Shown piece after piece: positions 1 to 7,904 of a DNA stretch of 35,731 bases. The stretch comes from Methylobacterium sp. (GTDB lineage: Bacteria; Pseudomonadota; Alphaproteobacteria; Rhizobiales; Beijerinckiaceae): the NCBI RefSeq assembly GCF_019750675.1, contig NZ_JAIEOF010000277.1, positions 1 through 35,731 on the forward strand. Direction: 5' to 3'. How positions within the stretch are numbered: the stretch's first letter is position 1; each line of letters begins with the position of its first letter. A program made the translations under genes and the position numbers. The notes beneath the pieces are model-generated. The model saw only the letters and a program-made list of their open reading frames with translations, searched no databases and was not told where the DNA came from.

Positions 1-377
1 CGGCCCACGGCATCACCATCGAGGCGATGCCGTTGAACAGCGCGATCTGCGAGCCCGCCCGCGGCGCGGCGTTGAAGCCCGGCCGGCACGCGATCCGCGG
101 CTACGCCATCGCCAGCGACCGCGCGGTCGCCCGCGTCGACGTCTCGACGGATGGCGGCCGCAGCTGGGCGCAGGCCCGGATCGACCGCGATGCGGACGCG
201 CCCTACGCCTGGACGTTCTGGGAGATCGAGCGCGAGCTGACCGCTGGCGAGCACGAACTCGCGGTGCGGGCCTGGGATTCCGCCGGCCAGACCCAGCCGG
301 CAGCCCCCGACGACACCTGGAACTACAAGGGCTACCTCAGCGCCGCCTGGCACCGGGTGCGGGTGAGCGTCGCCTGA
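1..377 (+). CDS. Sulfite oxidase-type molybdopterin enzyme, C-terminal fragment
   Basis: The reading frame is open from base 3 and ends at TGA 375-377, so only the last ~125 residues are present and the gene starts outside the window. The fragment has the Ig-like fold signature of the Mo-co oxidoreductase dimerisation domain: an IRGYAIASD-like strand, a VDVSTDGGRSW strand-turn, 'WTFWEIE', and a terminal 'WNYKGYLSAAWHRVRV' with the conserved WN.KG. This domain follows the catalytic Moco domain in sulfite oxidases, which oxidise sulfite to sulfate, usually in the bacterial periplasm. The catalytic cysteine is not in view, so activity and cofactor are inferred from the family. Its stop lies 6 bases from the stop of the convergent DUF202 gene. 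A LysR regulator of the YeiE/CysB style nearby may be functionally linked. Confidence 0.8.
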   Translation, partial: AHGITIEAMPLNSAICEPARGAALKPGRHAIRGYAIASDRAVARVDVSTDGGRSWAQARIDRDADAPYAWTFWEIERELTAGEHELAVRAWDSAGQTQPAAPDDTWNYKGYLSAAWHRVRVSVA

Positions 378-383
378 TGACCC

Positions 384-755
384 TCACGCCCAGAGCAGGG
401 CGGTGGCCGCGAGACCCGAGATCGCGATCAGCAGGGCCCCGATCCCGACGGTGAGGAGGCGCGGCATCATCGGGATTTCGGCATGGGCCAGTCGCGCCCG
501 GATCGCACGGTCCCGCCACACGGCGCCGGCGAATGAGGCGAGCGCGCAGGCGATCAGCGTCAGCGACAGCACCTTCAGCGGCCAGACCGCCAGCACCTCC
601 CGCAGGAGGCGCTGCGCGGCGAGGCCGACGCCGAGGAAGGCGAGCCCGGTGCGAAGCCACGCCACGAAGGTGCGCTCGGCCGCCAGCACGGTCCGGTCCT
701 CGGCGAGCCTTACCCGGGGGTCGTCGGGGGGCACGGGTTTCGCGGGCTCGCTCAT
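384..755 (-). CDS. DUF202 (YidH-type) small membrane protein
   Basis: A 123-residue protein. Residues 13-45 carry the DUF202 signature (LAEDRTVLAAERTFVAWLRT), followed by three predicted membrane helices at about 31-50, 62-80 and 100-122. The biochemical role of this family is not established. The ATG at 753-755 overlaps the TGA of the upstream LysR gene (752-754) in an ATGA arrangement, so translation is probably coupled and the protein is the last member of the leftward sigma/anti-sigma/LysR operon. The same strand stays open upstream in this frame, but those upstream residues are arginine-rich shadow sequence, which is why the start is placed here. Membership in the ECF operon suggests an envelope-stress role; this is inference only. 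Confidence 0.82.
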   Translation of the reverse strand: MSEPAKPVPPDDPRVRLAEDRTVLAAERTFVAWLRTGLAFLGVGLAAQRLLREVLAVWPLKVLSLTLIACALASFAGAVWRDRAIRARLAHAEIPMMPRLLTVGIGALLIAISGLAATALLWA

Positions 756-1642
756 CCGGCATTCGCTGCCGCGATCAGGTCGAGAAGTGCATCGGCGGCC
801 CGGCTGCGGTAGCGCTCCTTGTGGCGCAGCACCCGGAACGGCCGGCTCGGTAAGTCGAACGCCGCCCGCACCAGGGTCCCGGCCCGAAGTGCTGCGGCGA
901 CCACGGTCTCGGACAGTACGGCGGCCCCGCCCCCGGCCTCGACGGCAGCGCGGACCGCCTCGTTCGAGGGCAGTTCGAGCGTGACCCGAAGCTGGGCGGC
1001 TGCGAGGCCGGCCGCACCCAGGGCCGCCTCGAAGGCCGAGCGGGTTCCCGATCCAGCCTCGCGCAGCACCCAATCGACCCCGGCGAGGTTTTCGGGTTCG
1101 AGGTCGGTCGCCCCGGCGAAGGCATGGCCAGGGGCGACCACGAGGACCAGTTGGTCCTGCGCGATGGTCGTACTCGCGAGCGTCGGGTCGTCCAGCGCCC
1201 CCTCGACAAAGCCGAGTTCGGCCTGCCCCGCGCGCACCGCGTCGGCGGCGTCGGTGGTGTTGCCCACCGCCAACCGGATGGCGATCTCAGGGTAGGCCCG
1301 GCGGAAGGCGACGAGGTGGCGCGGCAGCCAGTCGCTGGCGATGGTCTGGCTGGCATAGAGGGCCAGCGTCCCGCGTCGCATGCCACTGAGGTCGGCGAGC
1401 ACCAGTTCGGCAGCCTCGGCACGGGCGAGCACGGCGCGGGCCTCGACGAGGAACACGCGTCCCGCCTCGGTCAGCTCTATCCCGCGGCCGACCCGGTGGA
1501 ACAGCTTCGTCGCGTTTCGTCCCTCGATATTGGCGATCGCCGTGCTGACCGCCGACTGGACGAGGTTGAGCGCCTCGGCGGCCCGCGTCACGTGCTGCCG
1601 CTCGGCCACCGCCACGAAGATGCGGAGTTGGTCGAGGGTCAT
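752..1642 (-). CDS. LysR-family transcriptional regulator (YeiE/CysB-like)
   Basis: A 296-residue protein of standard LysR length. The N-terminal winged helix-turn-helix spans about residues 1-60 (MTLDQLRIFVAVAER, then RAAEALNLVQSAVSTAI). The C-terminal two-lobe effector domain runs from about 88 to 290 and includes 'GSGTRSAFEAAL', typical of the subgroup containing YeiE and CysB-like sensors of small anions. Its start codon (1640-1642) overlaps the anti-sigma stop, and its stop overlaps the DUF202 start, so it is embedded in an ECF operon rather than standing divergent to a target gene as LysR regulators usually do. A sulfite-oxidase gene ends just downstream on the other strand, so a sulfur-oxyanion ligand is plausible but not shown. 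Confidence 0.88.
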   Translation of the reverse strand: MTLDQLRIFVAVAERQHVTRAAEALNLVQSAVSTAIANIEGRNATKLFHRVGRGIELTEAGRVFLVEARAVLARAEAAELVLADLSGMRRGTLALYASQTIASDWLPRHLVAFRRAYPEIAIRLAVGNTTDAADAVRAGQAELGFVEGALDDPTLASTTIAQDQLVLVVAPGHAFAGATDLEPENLAGVDWVLREAGSGTRSAFEAALGAAGLAAAQLRVTLELPSNEAVRAAVEAGGGAAVLSETVVAAALRAGTLVRAAFDLPSRPFRVLRHKERYRSRAADALLDLIAAANAG

Positions 1643-2448
1643 GGTTGCCGCGGTGGAACCGGCAATCCACGGATCTGCGCATCAACCGCCTGCGCGACGG
1701 TCAACAGCCGCGCCTCGTCGGTGCGACCCGTGACGACGTAGGACATGCCGCCATCGACCCAGGAGAAGGCAGCCACATCGCCCTCGCGGGCGAAGCGGAA
1801 CACCGTGCGGCCATCCGCATCGCCCACGCGGCTGTAGAGCGTCAGCCGGGTGCCGTGATCGTCATCGTACATCAGCATCGCGGCGGCTTCGGAACCCGCC
1901 GGCAGCAGCCGGCCGCCCATCAGGCGGAAGCCGTAGGCCGTGAGGTCGGGGGTGGTCACCGCCCGGCCGAGGCGCTTCGAGAGCCACGTCACGAGGTGTG
2001 GCTTCTCGTCGGCGCGCACCTCCACCGGATGCAGCGCCTCGACCACGTAGGTGCGGAAGGCCGCCACCGCGTCGTCGGTCGCCGGCTCGGTTCGCGCGAG
2101 CGTGACCGTGGGTACCTGCCGCGCGGCATGGCCGAACCAGCCGGCGGCACCGCCGACCGCGAGGCAGAGCACGGCAGCCGCCGCGACCGGAAGCCAGCGC
2201 CCAGTTATCGGGCGATGTCGCGAGCGGATATTGGCCACCCGGAGCCGCGCCGGGATCGCCTCCTCGGCGATCGGCGCGAGGCGGGCACGCAAGCGCTCAC
2301 GCAGGGCGCGATCCGCCGAGACCTCGGCCGCCCGCGCGGGGTTTCCCCTGAGCCATGCCTCGACCAGCGCCTGCCGCTCCGGTTCAAGATGACCGTCGAT
2401 CAGGCCGTGCAGGTCGTCCTCGCCGACCGGGCGCGGATCCCCGCTCAT
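1639..2448 (-). CDS. Anti-sigma factor, single-pass membrane protein
   Basis: A 269-residue protein. The cytoplasmic N-terminal part (residues 1-80) has the short-helix composition of anti-sigma domains ('DDLHGLIDGHLEPERQALVE', then 'ERLRARLAPI'). One membrane helix lies at about 85-107 (WLPVAAAAVLCLAVGGAAGW). The C-terminal ~160 residues would be periplasmic. No HxxxCxxC zinc motif is present; the only cysteine I see is in the membrane helix, so this is not a zinc (ZAS) type. The GTG/ATG start region overlaps the sigma-factor stop by 4 bases (2445-2448) and the gene's own stop overlaps the LysR start, the classic coupled sigma/anti-sigma layout. It probably holds the preceding sigma factor at the membrane until an envelope signal releases it; the signal is unknown. 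Confidence 0.85.
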   Translation of the reverse strand: MSGDPRPVGEDDLHGLIDGHLEPERQALVEAWLRGNPARAAEVSADRALRERLRARLAPIAEEAIPARLRVANIRSRHRPITGRWLPVAAAAVLCLAVGGAAGWFGHAARQVPTVTLARTEPATDDAVAAFRTYVVEALHPVEVRADEKPHLVTWLSKRLGRAVTTPDLTAYGFRLMGGRLLPAGSEAAAMLMYDDDHGTRLTLYSRVGDADGRTVFRFAREGDVAAFSWVDGGMSYVVTGRTDEARLLTVAQAVDAQIRGLPVPPRQP

Positions 2449-2954
2449 TTCACCCTCCTCAACAAGCCGGTTCGGCCCGTTTCCAGAAAACTTCGCATCC
2501 GCTCCCGGGCTCGGCTTAACCGCGACATCACCGTGCCCAGCGGTACTCCGAGCACCTGCGCCGCTTCCGCATAAGACAGATCCTCGACCGCGACGAGCAG
2601 TAGCACTGAGCGCTGCTCCTCGGGCAGGGCGTCGAGTCCGGTGAGCACGTCGCGTGCCCCCATAACGGCCTCGGGGTCGGCACCCGGATCGGGCACCTGC
2701 TCCAAAGCCTCAGCGCCGACATCGATGCCGCGCCGGCCCCGGCGTCGAACAGTGCCGAGGAACAGGTTGCGCTCGATCGTGAACAGCCAGGCTCGCAGGT
2801 CGCCATCGCGGCGACGTCCAGACCAGGCGGATAACGCCCGCTCGAGGGTGTCCTGGACGAGGTCATCCGCCGCCTCGCGGTCCCGCAACAGCGCGACGGC
2901 GTAGCGCCGCAACGCTGGGATCTGCGGTTCGATGAGGGCGGCGATCTCGTCCAC
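2445..2954 (-). CDS. ECF-family RNA polymerase sigma factor
   Basis: A 169-residue protein consisting of sigma region 2 (about 12-75, with 'DLVQDTLERAL' and 'LRAWLFTIERNLF') and region 4 (about 110-160, with 'LSYAEAAQVLGVPLGTVMSRL'), as expected for an ECF sigma. The start is a GTG at 2952-2954, 13 bases after the stop of the upstream YxFxxD protein gene, so the two are probably co-transcribed. The stop overlaps the anti-sigma start. The spacer between the neighbouring divergent genes carries two copies of a -35/-10-like motif that are the obvious candidate targets; if so, the sigma factor activates its own operon. Confidence 0.93.
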   Translation of the reverse strand: MDEIAALIEPQIPALRRYAVALLRDREAADDLVQDTLERALSAWSGRRRDGDLRAWLFTIERNLFLGTVRRRGRRGIDVGAEALEQVPDPGADPEAVMGARDVLTGLDALPEEQRSVLLLVAVEDLSYAEAAQVLGVPLGTVMSRLSRARERMRSFLETGRTGLLRRVK

Positions 2955-2967
2955 GAGGCTTTACCGA

Positions 2968-3351
2968 TTAGGGCTTGGCGATGTGCCATGCACCGTTGAG
3001 GAATCCGTCGCCGGTGATGTCGCCGGGCTTCGTATCCTTGGCGAAGGTGTAGAGCGGCTTGCCCTTATAGGCCCACTGCATCGTGCCGTCGTCCCGCGTC
3101 ACCATCGTCCAGTCGCCACTAGCAGCCGAGCCGGAGGCGGCCATCAGTGCCGGCCAGTTGGCGGCGCAGGGGCCGTTGCACATCGACTTGCCGCCCATGT
3201 CCTTGTCGAAGGTGTAGAGGGTCATGCTCTTGGCATCGACGAGCGCCGGCCCCTTGGCAGTCTCGGCCGTCATCGCAGGCGCAGCGGCCTGGGCGGCGAC
3301 GGCGGAGAAGGCGAAGGCCGCAAAGGCGGCGCGGATCAGCATGGTGCGCAT
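2968..3351 (-). CDS. Secreted protein with two YxFxxD repeats (COG4315-type)
   Basis: A 127-residue protein with an N-terminal signal peptide (about residues 1-23, ending AQAAA). The mature part carries two copies of the repeat that defines this family of small secreted proteins: 'LYTFDKD' (45-51) and 'LYTFAKD' (100-106). Between them lies a conserved 'CNGPCAANWPAL' segment with Cys58 and Cys62. No lipobox cysteine follows the signal peptide, so despite the family's usual label it is probably soluble in the periplasm. Its function is unknown. The ATG at 3349-3351 is preceded by a GGAG site. It is the first gene of the leftward unit and has a candidate ECF promoter (3387-3417) about 35 bases upstream. 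Confidence 0.88.
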   Translation of the reverse strand: MRTMLIRAAFAAFAFSAVAAQAAAPAMTAETAKGPALVDAKSMTLYTFDKDMGGKSMCNGPCAANWPALMAASGSAASGDWTMVTRDDGTMQWAYKGKPLYTFAKDTKPGDITGDGFLNGAWHIAKP

Positions 3352-3386: not shown

Positions 3387-3417
3387 GGGAGAGATGCCGA
3401 ACGGGCGCGTCTATTCC
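3387..3417 (-). promoter_or_regulatory. Candidate ECF-sigma promoter driving the leftward operon
   Basis: Read on the minus strand, GGAATA (3417-3412) is followed by 13 bases and then GGCATCTCTCCC (3398-3387). The same two blocks with the same spacing occur on the plus strand at 3476-3506. The motif ends about 35 bases before the start codon of the YxFxxD protein gene. The GGAA-type -35 element and short C-rich -10 element fit ECF promoter architecture. Assigning it to the adjacent sigma factor is inference. Confidence 0.65.
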
Positions 3418-3475
3418 ACTGACATTTGGAAAAGATCGATCACATCGGCAGGGCCGCCAATTCGTCCCCGGCCAG

Positions 3476-3506
3476 GGAATAAAATCGTTTCCCCGGCATC
3501 TCTCCC
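3476..3506 (+). promoter_or_regulatory. Candidate ECF-sigma promoter driving DUF305 and propeller genes
   Basis: GGAATA (3476-3481), 13 bases, then GGCATCTCTCCC (3495-3506). This is the exact counterpart of the minus-strand motif at 3387-3417, with identical 12-base downstream block and identical spacing. It ends 27 bases before the ATG of the DUF305 gene (3534), leaving room for a short leader with a GGGAGG ribosome binding site. Confidence 0.65.
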
Positions 3507-3533: not shown

Positions 3534-3989
3534 ATGCGCGGAGCATTGGGATTTGCGCTCACGGCCGCCGTGATGGCCGGCGGCCTCGTCGGCGGCCGGA
3601 TGATGATGCCCCCGACGCTGGCCGCTGCCGAGCCGCCGGCCGTCGTCTCCGCGTCCTTCGACGCGATGATGGCGCAGTCGATGACGCGAATGCATGCCGA
3701 CATGATGGTCCCGCCCTCGGGCGATCCGGACCGCGACTTCGCCGCGATGATGATCCCGCACCACGAGGGCGCGATCGCGATGGCCCAGGCGGAGCTGCTC
3801 TACGGCAAGGATCCGGTCCTGCGCCGCCTCGCGCAGGGGATCATCGTCGAACAGGGCCAGGAAATCGCGGTGATGCGCCGGGCGCTCGCCGATCTCCCTC
3901 CCGCGCCGGATTCGTCCGCCGCAGCCACCCACCTTCACCACCATGGCACGGCCCCTGCCGCCGAGATGCCTTCGGAGAACCGCCGATGA
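3534..3989 (+). CDS. DUF305 family secreted protein, His/Met-rich
   Basis: A 151-residue protein with an N-terminal signal or anchor helix (about 5-31). The core DUF305 motif is 'MMIPHHEGAIAMAQAELL' (72-89), preceded by a Met-rich stretch (Met45-Met58) and by 'DPDRDFAAMM'. The tail has a 'HLHHH' cluster (133-137). DUF305 proteins have a ferritin-like helical fold and are often found near copper-handling genes; the density of His and Met here suits metal binding, but this is not demonstrated. A GGGAGG site precedes the ATG and the candidate ECF promoter at 3476-3506 lies just upstream. The stop overlaps the start of the next gene by 4 bases (3986-3989), so the two proteins are co-translated. 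Confidence 0.85.
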   Translation: MRGALGFALTAAVMAGGLVGGRMMMPPTLAAAEPPAVVSASFDAMMAQSMTRMHADMMVPPSGDPDRDFAAMMIPHHEGAIAMAQAELLYGKDPVLRRLAQGIIVEQGQEIAVMRRALADLPPAPDSSAAATHLHHHGTAPAAEMPSENRR

Positions 3990-5422
3990 AGACCGCCCTG
4001 ACCGTCCTCGCCCTCGCGTTGCTCTCCGGCTCGGCTCTCGCCGGGCAGGTTCCGGGCCCCGCGTCAGCACCCAATGTGCCGATCAGCGGCAAGGATCGGT
4101 TCTACACCTCGGATCAGTTCTCCAACACGGTCTCGGTGGTCGATCCCGCCGCCAACACCATGCTTGGGGTGATTCGGCTCGGCGACCCGACGCCGATGAA
4201 CCTGAGCCCGCTCTATCGCGGGCAGCTCCTCGTCCACGGCATGGGCTTCTCGCCCGACCACAGAACGCTGCTCGCGGTCTCGATCGGCTCGAACTCCGTA
4301 AGCTTCATCGACACGGCGACCAACACGGTCCGCCACACCGCCTATGTCGGCCGCGCGCCGCACGAGTCCTTCTTCACGCCGGACGGCCGGGAGGTCTGGG
4401 TGAGCGTGCGCGGCGAGGACTACATCGCCGTGCTCGATGCCGCGACCGCCAAGGAGACGCGCCGGATCACCGTGCCGAACGGGCCCGGCATGACGATCTT
4501 CTCGCCGGACGGCGCCTACGGCTATGTCTGCTCCAGCTTCAGCCCCGAGACGGTAGTGATCGACACGAAGACCCACACCATCGTCGGGCGCGTGAAGCAG
4601 GAGAGCCCGTTCTGCCCCGACATCGCCGCGACACCGGACGGCAAGCAGGTGTGGTTGACCCTCAAGGATGTCGGCCGGACCCAGGTGTTCTCTGCGACGC
4701 CGCCCTTCGCGCCGCTGAAGACCATCGAGACCGGGCCGATCACCAACCACGTCAACATCGTCTCGACCAAGGCCGGCCAGTTCGCCTACGTGACGATCGG
4801 CGGCCTGAACCAGGTCAAGGTGTTCCGCACCGACGACTTCACCCAGGTTGCCACCATCCCGACCGGCGCCCTGCCGCACGGGCTCTGGCCCTCGGGCGAC
4901 GGCAGCCGCGTCTATGTTGGCCTGGAGAACGCCGACAAGGCGGCGGTGATCGACACCGCATCGAACACGGTGATCGCCGAGGTGCCGATCGGCCAGGGAC
5001 CGCAGGGCGTGGCCTACGTCCCGAACGCCGTGCCGGAGGGGGACGGAAAGCAGAACCTCCAGCCGCTGGGCGCCGCCGGCAAGACCAGCGCGCTGACGCT
5101 CGCGGGCACCGATGGCAAGCCGGCGACGCAGGTGACCCTGTTCGACCAGGGCGTGTTGCAGACGCTGCAGGCCGCGGTCACGGGACTACCCGCGAAGATG
5201 CCGTTCGTGCTGGCGCTGGCCGCCGATCCGAAGGGGGCCGCCGGCCTGGAGCCGCTCGCCGCCTTCATGACCAACCCGGCCGGCGCGGCCATCGTCAACG
5301 CGATCGGCCCGATCCGCCAGATCACCCGCACGGATGCCGGCGCGAGCCGGCGCTACCTCGTGGTGGTCTCAGGCAGGCCCGGTGAACTCGGCGGCGTCGT
5401 CCAGATGCAGACTGTGGATTGA
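3986..5422 (+). CDS. Periplasmic YVTN/YncE-type beta-propeller protein
   Basis: A 478-residue protein with a signal peptide (about 1-19, SGSALA then GQ). Residues ~30-345 are built of repeated YVTN-like blades: 'FYTSDQFSNTVSVVDPAANT', 'VSFIDTATNTVRHTAYVG', 'AVLDAATAKETRRITV', 'VVIDTKTHTIVGRV', 'AAVIDTASNTVIAEVPIG'. Each has the D-x-A/T-T-N-T turn typical of the family. The last ~120 residues form a separate region with no motif I recognise. Such propellers occur in periplasmic metal, redox and surface functions, and the exact role cannot be read here. Translation is coupled to the DUF305 gene through the ATGA overlap, so the two probably act together under the adjacent ECF system. Confidence 0.85.
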   Translation: MKTALTVLALALLSGSALAGQVPGPASAPNVPISGKDRFYTSDQFSNTVSVVDPAANTMLGVIRLGDPTPMNLSPLYRGQLLVHGMGFSPDHRTLLAVSIGSNSVSFIDTATNTVRHTAYVGRAPHESFFTPDGREVWVSVRGEDYIAVLDAATAKETRRITVPNGPGMTIFSPDGAYGYVCSSFSPETVVIDTKTHTIVGRVKQESPFCPDIAATPDGKQVWLTLKDVGRTQVFSATPPFAPLKTIETGPITNHVNIVSTKAGQFAYVTIGGLNQVKVFRTDDFTQVATIPTGALPHGLWPSGDGSRVYVGLENADKAAVIDTASNTVIAEVPIGQGPQGVAYVPNAVPEGDGKQNLQPLGAAGKTSALTLAGTDGKPATQVTLFDQGVLQTLQAAVTGLPAKMPFVLALAADPKGAAGLEPLAAFMTNPAGAAIVNAIGPIRQITRTDAGASRRYLVVVSGRPGELGGVVQMQTVD

Positions 5423-5987: not shown

Positions 5988-7904
5988 ATGTCGTCGGTCC
6001 ACGAACGGACGGCCATCGTCCGCCATCTCGCCGAAGACCCTGCCTTCGTCGGCATCGGCTACGCGACCGCCGGTAGGCTCTCGACCTTACTCGGCGACGA
6101 TCTCGCCCGCGCGCTTGCGGAAGGCGATCTCGCTGCCCTTACCCCGATCCTGGGCGCCGAACGATCCGAAACTCTCGTTGCGGCATGGCGCGACCGGCAG
6201 GGGGAGGGCGATGTCGTCGTCTGGCTCGCCGAGAACGGCTTCGAGGGTCGGCTCGCCCGGAAGGTGGTCGGTCTGTGGGGCGCCGAGGCGGCATCGCGCC
6301 TCCGGGCCGATCCGTGGCTGATGATGGCGCTCGCGGACTTCGAGCCGGTCGACGCCGCCGCCCGACGCCTCGGCCTGCCTCTCGATGCGGATGAACGAAG
6401 AATCGCCGCCGTCGAGGCGGTCCTGTACCGGCGCCTGGACGAGCACCACACCTGGACGGAGAGGGGCGAGGTCGAGCGGCGAGCGGGACGGCTGCTGCGC
6501 TGCCGACCTGCCGAAGCGGCGGAAGCGGTGTCGAAGGCTGTCGCCATGAGGGCCGCCGTCCCTCTCGGCACCGGTCTGCAGCCTGCCGGTGCCGCCATGA
6601 TGGAGGCGTTCGTCGCAGATGCCCTGGCGGGATTGCTTGCCGAGCGTCGCAGCGAAGACCTGATCGCGCGCGAGGTCGGCGCAGAGGAAATCGATGCATG
6701 GCTCGACGATGCTTCAGGAACCATCGGGGTCGATCTCGGCATCGAACAGCGGACGGCGGTCCGGATGGCGCTCAGCAGCCGGTTCGGACTGTTGACCGGC
6801 GGAGCCGGTGTCGGGAAGACCACGGTCTTGAAGGCTATCGTCGACGCCTCGGAGCACTTCGGCCGCGCCGTCCACCAGATGGCGCTCGCCGGTCGTGCGG
6901 CTGTCCGGATGACCGAGGCCACCGGCCGGAAGGCATGGACGATCGCTGCGTTCCTGAAGAGCGTGGAGGCCAGGCAGATCGTCGTCGGCCCGGAGGCTCT
7001 GCTTGTCGTGGACGAGAGCTCGATGCTCGATCTGCCGACCCTCTATCGAATTCTGAGGGCGATGCCGGCGAGCGGTCGTCTCCTTCTGGTCGGCGACCCG
7101 GCGCAGCTTCCACCGATCGGGTTCGGTCTGACGCTTCACGCGCTCGAACGGATTCCCGCGATCCCGAAGGTCGAACTGCGGACGATCCGGCGCCAGTCGA
7201 CGACCTCCGGGATCCCGGTCGTAGCTGCAGCCATCCGAGACGGCAGGCTTCCAGGGCTCGAACCGTTCGATCGCGAGACCGGCGGCGTGTCCATTCTGGA
7301 TTGCGGACCCAATGAGATCGCGAGCCAGCTCGTCGATGTCGTCGCCGAACTCGGCGGAATCGGACCGGTGCGCATCCTCTCCGCTCTGAAAGCCGGAGCG
7401 AGCGGCACCGCCGCCATGAATGCCTGCTTCCATCGCATCGTGTCTCTCGGAGGCACCGCAGGACCATCTCGCTTCGTCGCCGGCGAGCCGGTGGTCTTTC
7501 TGCGCAACGACTACCGGCGGGATCTCCGCAACGGCAGCCTGGGCGAGGTGGTCTCTGTCGAGACGGACGGCGCCGTGATCACCTTATTCGACGGGTCCGA
7601 GCATCGCCTGACTGGTCGAGATCTCGACGATCTGGACCACGCCTATGCGATCACCGTGCACAAGGCTCAGGGCTCTGCCTTCCGCACCGTCGTAATCCCG
7701 ATCGTCGCGTCGAGGCTCCTGGATCGATCATTGATCTACACGGCCCTGACGCGAGGGATCGACCGTGTCGTTTTCGTCGGCAGCCGGGACGTTCTGCGTT
7801 TGTCTGTGGAAAAGTCGCCGAATTCAGCCTTCCGGCAGACCGGCCTGATCGAGGCGATCGACGAGCATTTGGGGGGAGAGAACCAATCCAGTGAGCTCGT
7901 ATGA
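5988..7904 (+). CDS. RecD2-like SF1B DNA helicase (AAA family)
   Basis: A 638-residue protein from the ATG at 5988, which is preceded by GGGAGG at 5972-5977; the frame is open further upstream but has no ribosome binding site there. The N-terminal ~200 residues resemble the helix-hairpin-helix region of RecD2 (repeated 'GIGYATAGRL' and 'WLAENGFEGRLARKV'). The motor follows: motif I GGAGVGKTT (271-279), motif II VVDESSMLDL (Asp342, Glu343), motif III GDPAQLPPIG (from 369), motif V 'AITVHKAQGSAFRTVV' and motif VI 'IYTALTRGIDRVVFVG'. These features define a 5'-3' SF1B helicase; no RecB or RecC partner is nearby, as expected for RecD2. It is shorter than typical RecD2 (about 720-850 residues). 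It is a single gene with lower-G+C flanks, so lateral acquisition is plausible. Confidence 0.85.
   Translation: MSSVHERTAIVRHLAEDPAFVGIGYATAGRLSTLLGDDLARALAEGDLAALTPILGAERSETLVAAWRDRQGEGDVVVWLAENGFEGRLARKVVGLWGAEAASRLRADPWLMMALADFEPVDAAARRLGLPLDADERRIAAVEAVLYRRLDEHHTWTERGEVERRAGRLLRCRPAEAAEAVSKAVAMRAAVPLGTGLQPAGAAMMEAFVADALAGLLAERRSEDLIAREVGAEEIDAWLDDASGTIGVDLGIEQRTAVRMALSSRFGLLTGGAGVGKTTVLKAIVDASEHFGRAVHQMALAGRAAVRMTEATGRKAWTIAAFLKSVEARQIVVGPEALLVVDESSMLDLPTLYRILRAMPASGRLLLVGDPAQLPPIGFGLTLHALERIPAIPKVELRTIRRQSTTSGIPVVAAAIRDGRLPGLEPFDRETGGVSILDCGPNEIASQLVDVVAELGGIGPVRILSALKAGASGTAAMNACFHRIVSLGGTAGPSRFVAGEPVVFLRNDYRRDLRNGSLGEVVSVETDGAVITLFDGSEHRLTGRDLDDLDHAYAITVHKAQGSAFRTVVIPIVASRLLDRSLIYTALTRGIDRVVFVGSRDVLRLSVEKSPNSAFRQTGLIEAIDEHLGGENQSSELV

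What the first reader, a model, noticed from the sequence alone, without database searches (positions are those of the whole stretch)
3387..3506. Two mirror-image copies of one ECF-type promoter between divergent genes next to the ECF sigma operon
The minus strand reads GGAATA - 13 bases - GGCATCTCTCCC toward the YxFxxD protein, and the plus strand reads the same two blocks with the same 13-base gap toward the DUF305 gene. The intervening bases differ, so only the contact regions are conserved, which is what selection for a sigma factor would leave. The sigma factor gene itself lies in the leftward unit, giving an autoregulated regulon of seven genes.
Basis: partly seen in the sequence, partly recalled or inferred. 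Interest (0 to 1): 0.82.

Follow-up and report, generated by a model that had tools for sequence, protein, structure and literature searches.

The report
Back-to-back promoters of a sulfite-stress regulon
Two copies of one DNA motif sit back to back between two gene sets in a Methylobacterium-like bacterium, and the sigma factor encoded next door is predicted to read both as start signals and would thereby likely switch on its own genes together with sulfite-removing enzymes.

Summary
Comparative evidence supports promoters read by the adjacent ECF sigma factor (2445-2954 -). The motif occurs in 25 of 25 genus genomes with a close copy of this sigma gene and 2 of 12 without. The mirror copy occurs in 30 of 31 loci with the divergent DUF305 gene and 0 of 11 without. 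The layout matches the ECF26 sulfite circuits of Sinorhizobium and Starkeya (PMC3511301, PMC6527743); the first already names Methylobacterium. What departs is the -10: CATC, where the published consensus has CGTC/GT and most relatives examined have CGTC or TGTC. ECF residue 67 follows that dinucleotide best of all columns, with modest hold-out support. Stimulus, sigma dependence and base contacts are inferred. It is a well-supported new variant of a known regulon type, not a new kind of system.

The parts
3387..3417 (-). Predicted ECF promoter towards the sigma operon: -35 GGAATA at 3417-3412, -10 block GGCATCTCTCCC at 3398-3387 (CATC 3396-3393); 41 bases from CATC to the ATG at 3351
   Evidence: conserved in genus
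3476..3506 (+). Predicted ECF promoter towards DUF305-YVTN: -35 GGAATA 3476-3481, -10 block 3495-3506 (CATC 3497-3500); 33 bases from CATC to the ATG at 3534
   Evidence: present in 30 of 31 loci with the DUF305 gene, 0 of 11 without
3418..3475 (.). 58 bp between the two -35 elements
   Evidence: 57 or 58 bp in the 18 loci measured; 18 of 58 columns invariant
2968..3351 (-). Secreted Lipoprotein_15 (COG4315-like) protein, first gene of the sigma operon
   Evidence: Pfam PF03640, E 5.7e-37
2445..2954 (-). ECF sigma factor (GTG start, 169 aa), predicted reader of both promoters
   Evidence: sigma region 2 and 4 Pfam matches; RNA polymerase sigma matches in NCBIfam
1639..2448 (-). Likely anti-sigma factor with one apparent membrane segment (by eye)
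   Evidence: no Pfam match; weak NCBIfam anti-sigma matches below cut-off; position overlapping the ECF gene by 4 bases
752..1642 (-). LysR-type regulator, overlaps the anti-sigma gene by 4 bases
   Evidence: Pfam PF00126, PF03466
384..755 (-). DUF202 membrane protein, overlaps the LysR gene by 4 bases
   Evidence: Pfam PF02656
3534..3989 (+). DUF305 protein (NCBIfam CopM family metallochaperone), divergent unit
   Evidence: PF03713; NF049983 above cut-off
3986..5422 (+). YVTN beta-propeller protein, overlaps DUF305 by 4 bases
   Evidence: TIGR02276
1..377 (+). C-terminal end of a second sulfite oxidase, cut by the contig end; in L256 it lies behind the second propeller gene
   Evidence: 97-98% match to the SOE gene of L253, L255-L257; intact copy in L256 is Oxidored_molyb + Mo-co_dimer

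Best explanation
The two mirror-image motifs are predicted to be promoters of one RpoE1-type (ECF26-like) sigma factor encoded next door, which likely answers sulfite or a related sulfur compound and would switch on its own operon, the DUF305-propeller pair and nearby sulfite-oxidizing enzymes together. The likely mechanism: the anti-sigma factor holds the sigma factor until a sulfur signal releases it; region 4 then reads GGAATA and region 2 reads CATC, so RNA polymerase can start in both directions from -35 elements 58 bp apart, and also at two single copies of the motif before sorA-cytochrome c and before a second propeller with a second sulfite oxidase. Shown: the motifs, their conservation, their co-occurrence with the sigma gene and with the divergent gene, and the protein families of the genes behind them. 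Inferred: sigma dependence, the stimulus, the operon boundaries and which residues read which bases.
For: Motif in 25 of 25 genus genomes with a close copy of the ECF gene, 2 of 12 without; 60 of 71 hits in 61 genomes lie within 10 kb of it or on the own contig C126; the reversed-pattern control gave 4 hits. Mirror copy in 30 of 31 loci with the divergent DUF305 gene and 0 of 11 without. Blocks invariant where spacers vary. Own genome: GGAATA-N13-RGCATCTC has 4 sites, two here, one before a SorA homologue (2blf chain A, E 4.8e-124) with a cytochrome (2blf chain B, E 1.8e-14), one before a second propeller. Whole island with 4 sites on one contig in named Methylobacterium loci L255-L257. Same gene order and -35 as S. 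meliloti RpoE1 (Lipoprotein_15-ECF-anti-sigma; GGAATA) and same DUF305-YVTN target as Starkeya RpoE1 (PMC3511301, PMC6180224, PMC6527743).
Against: No transcript or binding data. The -10 is CATC, not the published CGTC/GT (PMC6180224, PMC6527743). Seven other own-genome matches to GGAAT-N15..17-CATCTC and six to the looser GGAATA form (its control gave 1) are unassigned. SorA homologues at 80-85% identity (L090, L091, L264) have no site within 400 bp. The 11 loci without DUF305 share similar replaced DNA, so they are few events, and L031 ends too near to tell whether the gene is there. L025 has DUF305 remains but no exact mirror copy.
Confidence: 0.83

Rival explanations
1. The inverted repeat is an operator for a dimeric repressor or for the operon's LysR regulator, not a pair of promoters.
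For: The arms are exact inverted copies, and a LysR gene lies in the operon.
Against: The same motif stands as a single copy before sorA and before the second propeller, and a single copy remains where the divergent gene is absent. The gap between the copies differs between lineages, about 45-48 bp in L104, L106, L107 against 57-58 in the genus. GGAATA plus CATC at this distance is the form of mapped ECF26 promoters (PMC6180224).
Confidence: 0.05
2. The promoters are real but are read mainly by another ECF sigma factor of the cell, such as a paralogous ECF26 or the general stress sigma factor.
For: Cross-activation among ECF26 sigma factors is documented (PMC3511301, PMC6527743, PMC10880074), and many genomes of the genus hold a paralogue.
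Against: The motif follows the presence of this sigma gene. The paralogue sits beside CGTC promoters. The own genome's next-best ECF match to this protein is at E 3.6e-29.
Confidence: 0.07
3. The regulon is right but the signal is not sulfite: copper, tetrathionate or another stress releases the sigma factor, and sulfite oxidases are only part of the answer.
For: DUF305 matches the CopM metallochaperone model; Starkeya RpoE1 answered tetrathionate (PMC6527743); not all ECF26 genes of S. meliloti answer sulfite sources (PMC3511301).
Against: Two sulfite-oxidizing enzyme units share the promoter, and RpoE1/RpoE4 of S. meliloti answer sulfite-generating compounds (PMC3511301).
Confidence: 0.2

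Closest known systems
Sinorhizobium meliloti RpoE1/RpoE4 (ECF26) sulfite response (PMC3511301, PMC6180224; passages read)
   Same: Lipoprotein_15 gene first, then ECF, then anti-sigma; -35 GGAATA; autoregulation there; sulfite dehydrogenase among the targets
   Different: Mapped -10 is CGTC or TGTC there, CATC here; sorT lies in a separate rpoE4 locus there, while here a sorAB-like unit lies on the same island; no DUF305 unit is named among the RpoE1 targets in the passages read
Starkeya novella RpoE1 and SigE circuits (PMC6527743; introduction, results and discussion read)
   Same: RpoE1 drives a DUF305-YVTN unit and, in reporter assays, sorA; sorAB encodes the same kind of enzyme (2blf)
   Different: DUF305, YVTN, ECF and anti-sigma are numbered in a row (Snov_0990-0993), and the region upstream of rpoE1 was not activated; here the units are divergent with a promoter each; consensus -10 CGTC
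ECF26 with sulfite-oxidation genes in Methylobacterium chloromethanicum and M. radiotolerans (PMC3511301; passage and figure legend read, figure not held)
   Same: ECF26, anti-sigma and sulfite-oxidation genes together in this genus
   Different: The passages read do not describe the mirror-image pair, the four-promoter island or the CATC -10

Membership tests
ECF26 sigma factor circuit, RpoE1 type | ECF architecture: sigma regions 2 and 4 only | tested here: met
   Pfam Sigma70_r2 and Sigma70_r4_2 on 169 aa
ECF26 sigma factor circuit, RpoE1 type | Assignment to group ECF26 by the published group models or by comparison with S. meliloti RpoE1 | not tested
   Group models not on hand and the S. 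meliloti protein was not fetched; assigned here by gene order, -35 and a tree of its relatives
ECF26 sigma factor circuit, RpoE1 type | Lipoprotein_15 gene upstream in the sigma operon | tested here: met
   PF03640 at 2968-3351; feature described in PMC3511301 and PMC6180224
ECF26 sigma factor circuit, RpoE1 type | Co-directional anti-sigma gene with a membrane segment downstream | tested here: inconclusive
   Position fits; only weak NCBIfam matches; membrane segment judged by eye
ECF26 sigma factor circuit, RpoE1 type | -35 GGAATA | tested here: met
ECF26 sigma factor circuit, RpoE1 type | -10 with GT (CGTC), a typical rather than a defining trait | tested here: not met
   CATC in both window promoters and on the sigma side in 42 of 42 filtered genus loci; hence filed as a variant
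ECF26 sigma factor circuit, RpoE1 type | Sulfite-oxidizing enzyme genes behind the same promoter type | tested here: met
ECF26 sigma factor circuit, RpoE1 type | Induction by sulfite or sulfite-generating compounds | not testable with these tools
   needs expression data

The most novel reading that the evidence does not exclude
A natural rewiring of sigma-factor specificity: in Methylobacterium a sulfite regulon moved its -10 from CGTC to CATC, driven by loss of the polar residue at sigma2 position 67 (helped by loss of Arg43), which insulates it from the CGTC-reading ECF26 paralogue in the same cell. Residue 67 would be the general ECF26 reader of the two bases before the TC: Asn for TG, Ser or Asp for CG, small or other residues for CA.
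Probability: 0.3. Interest if true: 0.62.

Novelty: new variant of a known kind. Interest (0 to 1): 0.42.

Why it matters
It extends a characterised sulfur-stress sigma circuit to a complete four-promoter island in a common environmental genus. It also supplies natural variants of the -10 (CGTC, TGTC, CATC) beside the genes of the sigma factors that presumably read them, so the reading code of ECF sigma factors can be tested directly. If the change is real insulation, it shows how a cell keeps two sister sigma factors apart.

Tried and rejected
Residue 43 as the switch. It looked perfect at first (A/G/V in 27 CATC rows, R/H in 13 CGTC rows). But CATC occurs with Arg43 in L199 and in four rows of one other genus, and Ala43 occurs with TGTC (2 rows; 1) and CGTC (1). 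It may help but is not required.

A strict, regulon-wide switch. The second propeller promoter reads CGTC in 7 of 23 loci and CATC in 16, while sorA reads CATC in 23 of 23 (16 more loci of that call gave no genus sorA site or belong to other lineages). L199 has CATC on one side and CGTC on the other. Tolerance of both purines is possible.

Residue 67. It is the top column by mutual information, uncorrected for kinship (0.85; residue 81 follows at 0.83, which I did not expect as a contact). In 122 rows: TGTC has Asn in 22 of 24; CGTC has Ser/Asp in 47 of 66, Asn in 10, Thr in 7, Gly in 2; CATC has no Ser/Asp/Asn in 32 (one of them a gap). On supported branches only one independent pair exists for each comparison, so no test. 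On all branches of the weakly supported quick tree (which still held column 67) 9 pairs gave 5 agreeing, 0 opposing, 4 equal in 244 of 300 draws and 4/0/5 in 56. Hold-out, written down first: 13 of 60 loci had a site; TGTC had Asn in 3 of 3, CGTC in 1 of 9 (Fisher p 0.018; rows partly related). One CATC hit had Asn67, against my prediction; its gap is 14 and may be chance. Before the tree I dropped 6 of 128 rows with a site (5 not GGAATA, 1 TATC); rows without a site were left out.

Whether Todor et al. 2020 (PNAS; cited in PMC8103513 and PMC11588781; not held) already lists this residue I cannot say. L139 and L181 (Ala43) gave no clean extra test. No structure prediction was run.

Full report
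What is there. The plus strand at 3476-3506 and the minus strand at 3417-3387 both read GGAATA, 13 bases, GGCATCTCTCCC; the 31-mers share 22 letters, all 18 of the blocks and 4 of 13 spacer letters. The pattern is not expected by chance in the window. Leftward lie a Lipoprotein_15 protein, an ECF sigma factor, a likely anti-sigma factor, a LysR regulator and a DUF202 protein, packed with a 13-base gap and three 4-base overlaps. Rightward lie a DUF305/CopM-family protein and a YVTN propeller, again with a 4-base overlap.

More of the regulon. The own genome has 11 matches to GGAAT-N15..17-CATCTC and none for the reversed control. Four sites have the form GGAATA-N13-RGCATCTC: the two here and two on contig C126. 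One lies before a 407-aa SorA homologue followed by a small cytochrome. SorA matches chain A of sulfite:cytochrome c oxidoreductase 2blf, and the cytochrome, tested in its L256 copy, matches chain B; I recall 2blf as the Starkeya novella enzyme. The other lies before a second propeller gene. In Methylobacterium sp. NEAU 140 (L256) four sites and these genes lie on one contig, and the window's left-end fragment (1-377) corresponds to the C-terminus of a second sulfite oxidase behind that propeller; its best PDB matches are chains named sulfite oxidase (2a9d, 1sox). The other seven matches are unassigned; looser patterns give 10 CATC sites (4 of them these; reversed control 1) and 7 CGTC sites in the own genome, which I did not follow up.

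Is it the sigma factor's promoter? (1) Among 37 genomes of the genus, GGAATA-N13..14-RGCATCYC occurs in 25 of 25 with a close copy of this ECF gene and in 2 of 12 without; over all 61 genomes searched 60 of 71 hits lie within 10 kb of the gene or on C126 and 11 elsewhere, with 4 hits for the reversed pattern. (2) Of 42 loci that passed my filter (residue 43 A/G/V and the letters IEPQIP; one genome appears twice as L209 and L264), 42 have the sigma-side copy with CATC. The mirror copy is present in 30 of 31 with the divergent DUF305 gene and 0 of 11 without. L257, dropped by the filter, also has both copies. The exception, L025, has TGAATA at the -35 and only partial DUF305 and YVTN matches. 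Several of the 11 share the same replaced DNA, so they are not 11 events, and L031 ends too near to tell. (3) In 18 loci that I picked (15 distinct) invariance is 12 of 12 in the -35s, 19 of 24 in the -10 blocks, 14 of 26 in the spacers and 18 of 58 between.

The arrangement is old. Back-to-back copies with DUF305-YVTN on the other side also occur with CGTC in L104, L106, L107 and L109 and in mixed form in L199. A paralogous ECF family in the same genus has its own back-to-back CGTC pairs (L166, L168-L172, L175, L177, L180).

What it works like. In S. meliloti RpoE1 and RpoE4 (ECF26) answer sulfite-generating compounds and control the sulfite dehydrogenase SorT; [quoted passage not shown] passages). 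In Starkeya novella an RpoE1-like sigma factor drives a DUF305-YVTN unit and, in reporter assays, sorA; tetrathionate was its signal (PMC6527743; introduction, results and discussion read). PMC3511301 already lists M. chloromethanicum and M. radiotolerans as having ECF26 and sulfite-oxidation genes together. So the kind of system is known and the genus had been pointed out; what I read does not mention the mirror pair or CATC. My searches of the held library listed no paper devoted to this regulon in Methylobacterium; most subscription papers are not held.

What is different. The published -10 is GT or CGTC (PMC6180224, PMC6527743). On a quick tree of 122 ECF proteins with a GGAATA site the window's clade (27 rows, support 100) is all CATC; the base changes between A and G three times. 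The sorA promoter is CATC in 23 of 23 genus loci with a site, but the second propeller promoter is CGTC in 7 of 23, so the shift is strong, not absolute. In the numbering of PMC6372665 (passages) the changed base is '-13', and that paper suggests that sigma-L residues 78-82 could touch '-14/-13'. Residue 67 of this ECF falls in the corresponding helix (aligned to sigma-H; the step to sigma-L, about residue 79, uses recalled numbering). It is the column most informative on that dinucleotide. The hold-out written down beforehand agreed on T versus C at '-14' (p 0.018), but rested on 13 of 60 loci and included one CATC hit against prediction; the tree is too weak for a formal independent-pairs test. 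I therefore keep this as the novel case, not the verdict.

Verdict. A confirmed observation and a mostly right reading: a divergent promoter pair of an RpoE1/ECF26-like sigma factor in a four-promoter sulfite-oxidation regulon, with a lineage-specific CATC -10. Sigma dependence and the sulfur signal are inferred from relatives.

Noticed in passing
L166, L168-L172, L175, L177, L180 (upstream of their ECF gene): A paralogous ECF26-like sigma factor in the same genus has its own back-to-back promoter pair, with CGTC, towards a different divergent gene.
   Followed up: partly
L199, about 507 and 565 bases upstream of the ECF gene: A same-family relative (G457) carries CATC on the sigma side and CGTC on the DUF305 side, a possible half-way state.
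   Followed up: partly
L025 (G009): Only partial DUF305 and YVTN matches remain, and the mirror promoter reads TGAATA at the -35; promoter and genes seem to decay together.
   Followed up: partly
window 1-377 and G000 contig C126:37-846: A second sulfite oxidase gene is cut by a contig break, so the regulon island is split over two contigs in this assembly.
   Followed up: yes
G684 (contigs C4, C6, C9, C29) and G679:C1:3503666: One genus member holds four close copies of this ECF gene; another holds a second copy with a TAG inside.
   Followed up: no
L160, L242, L243, L244: Another genus of the family (g30) has CATCTC at its promoter before a YVTN-DUF305-ECF unit while keeping Arg43, an apparently independent CATC case.
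   Followed up: partly
window 5988-7904: A RecD2/TraI-like helicase gene stands beside the rightward unit; not linked to the motif by anything I saw.
   Followed up: no
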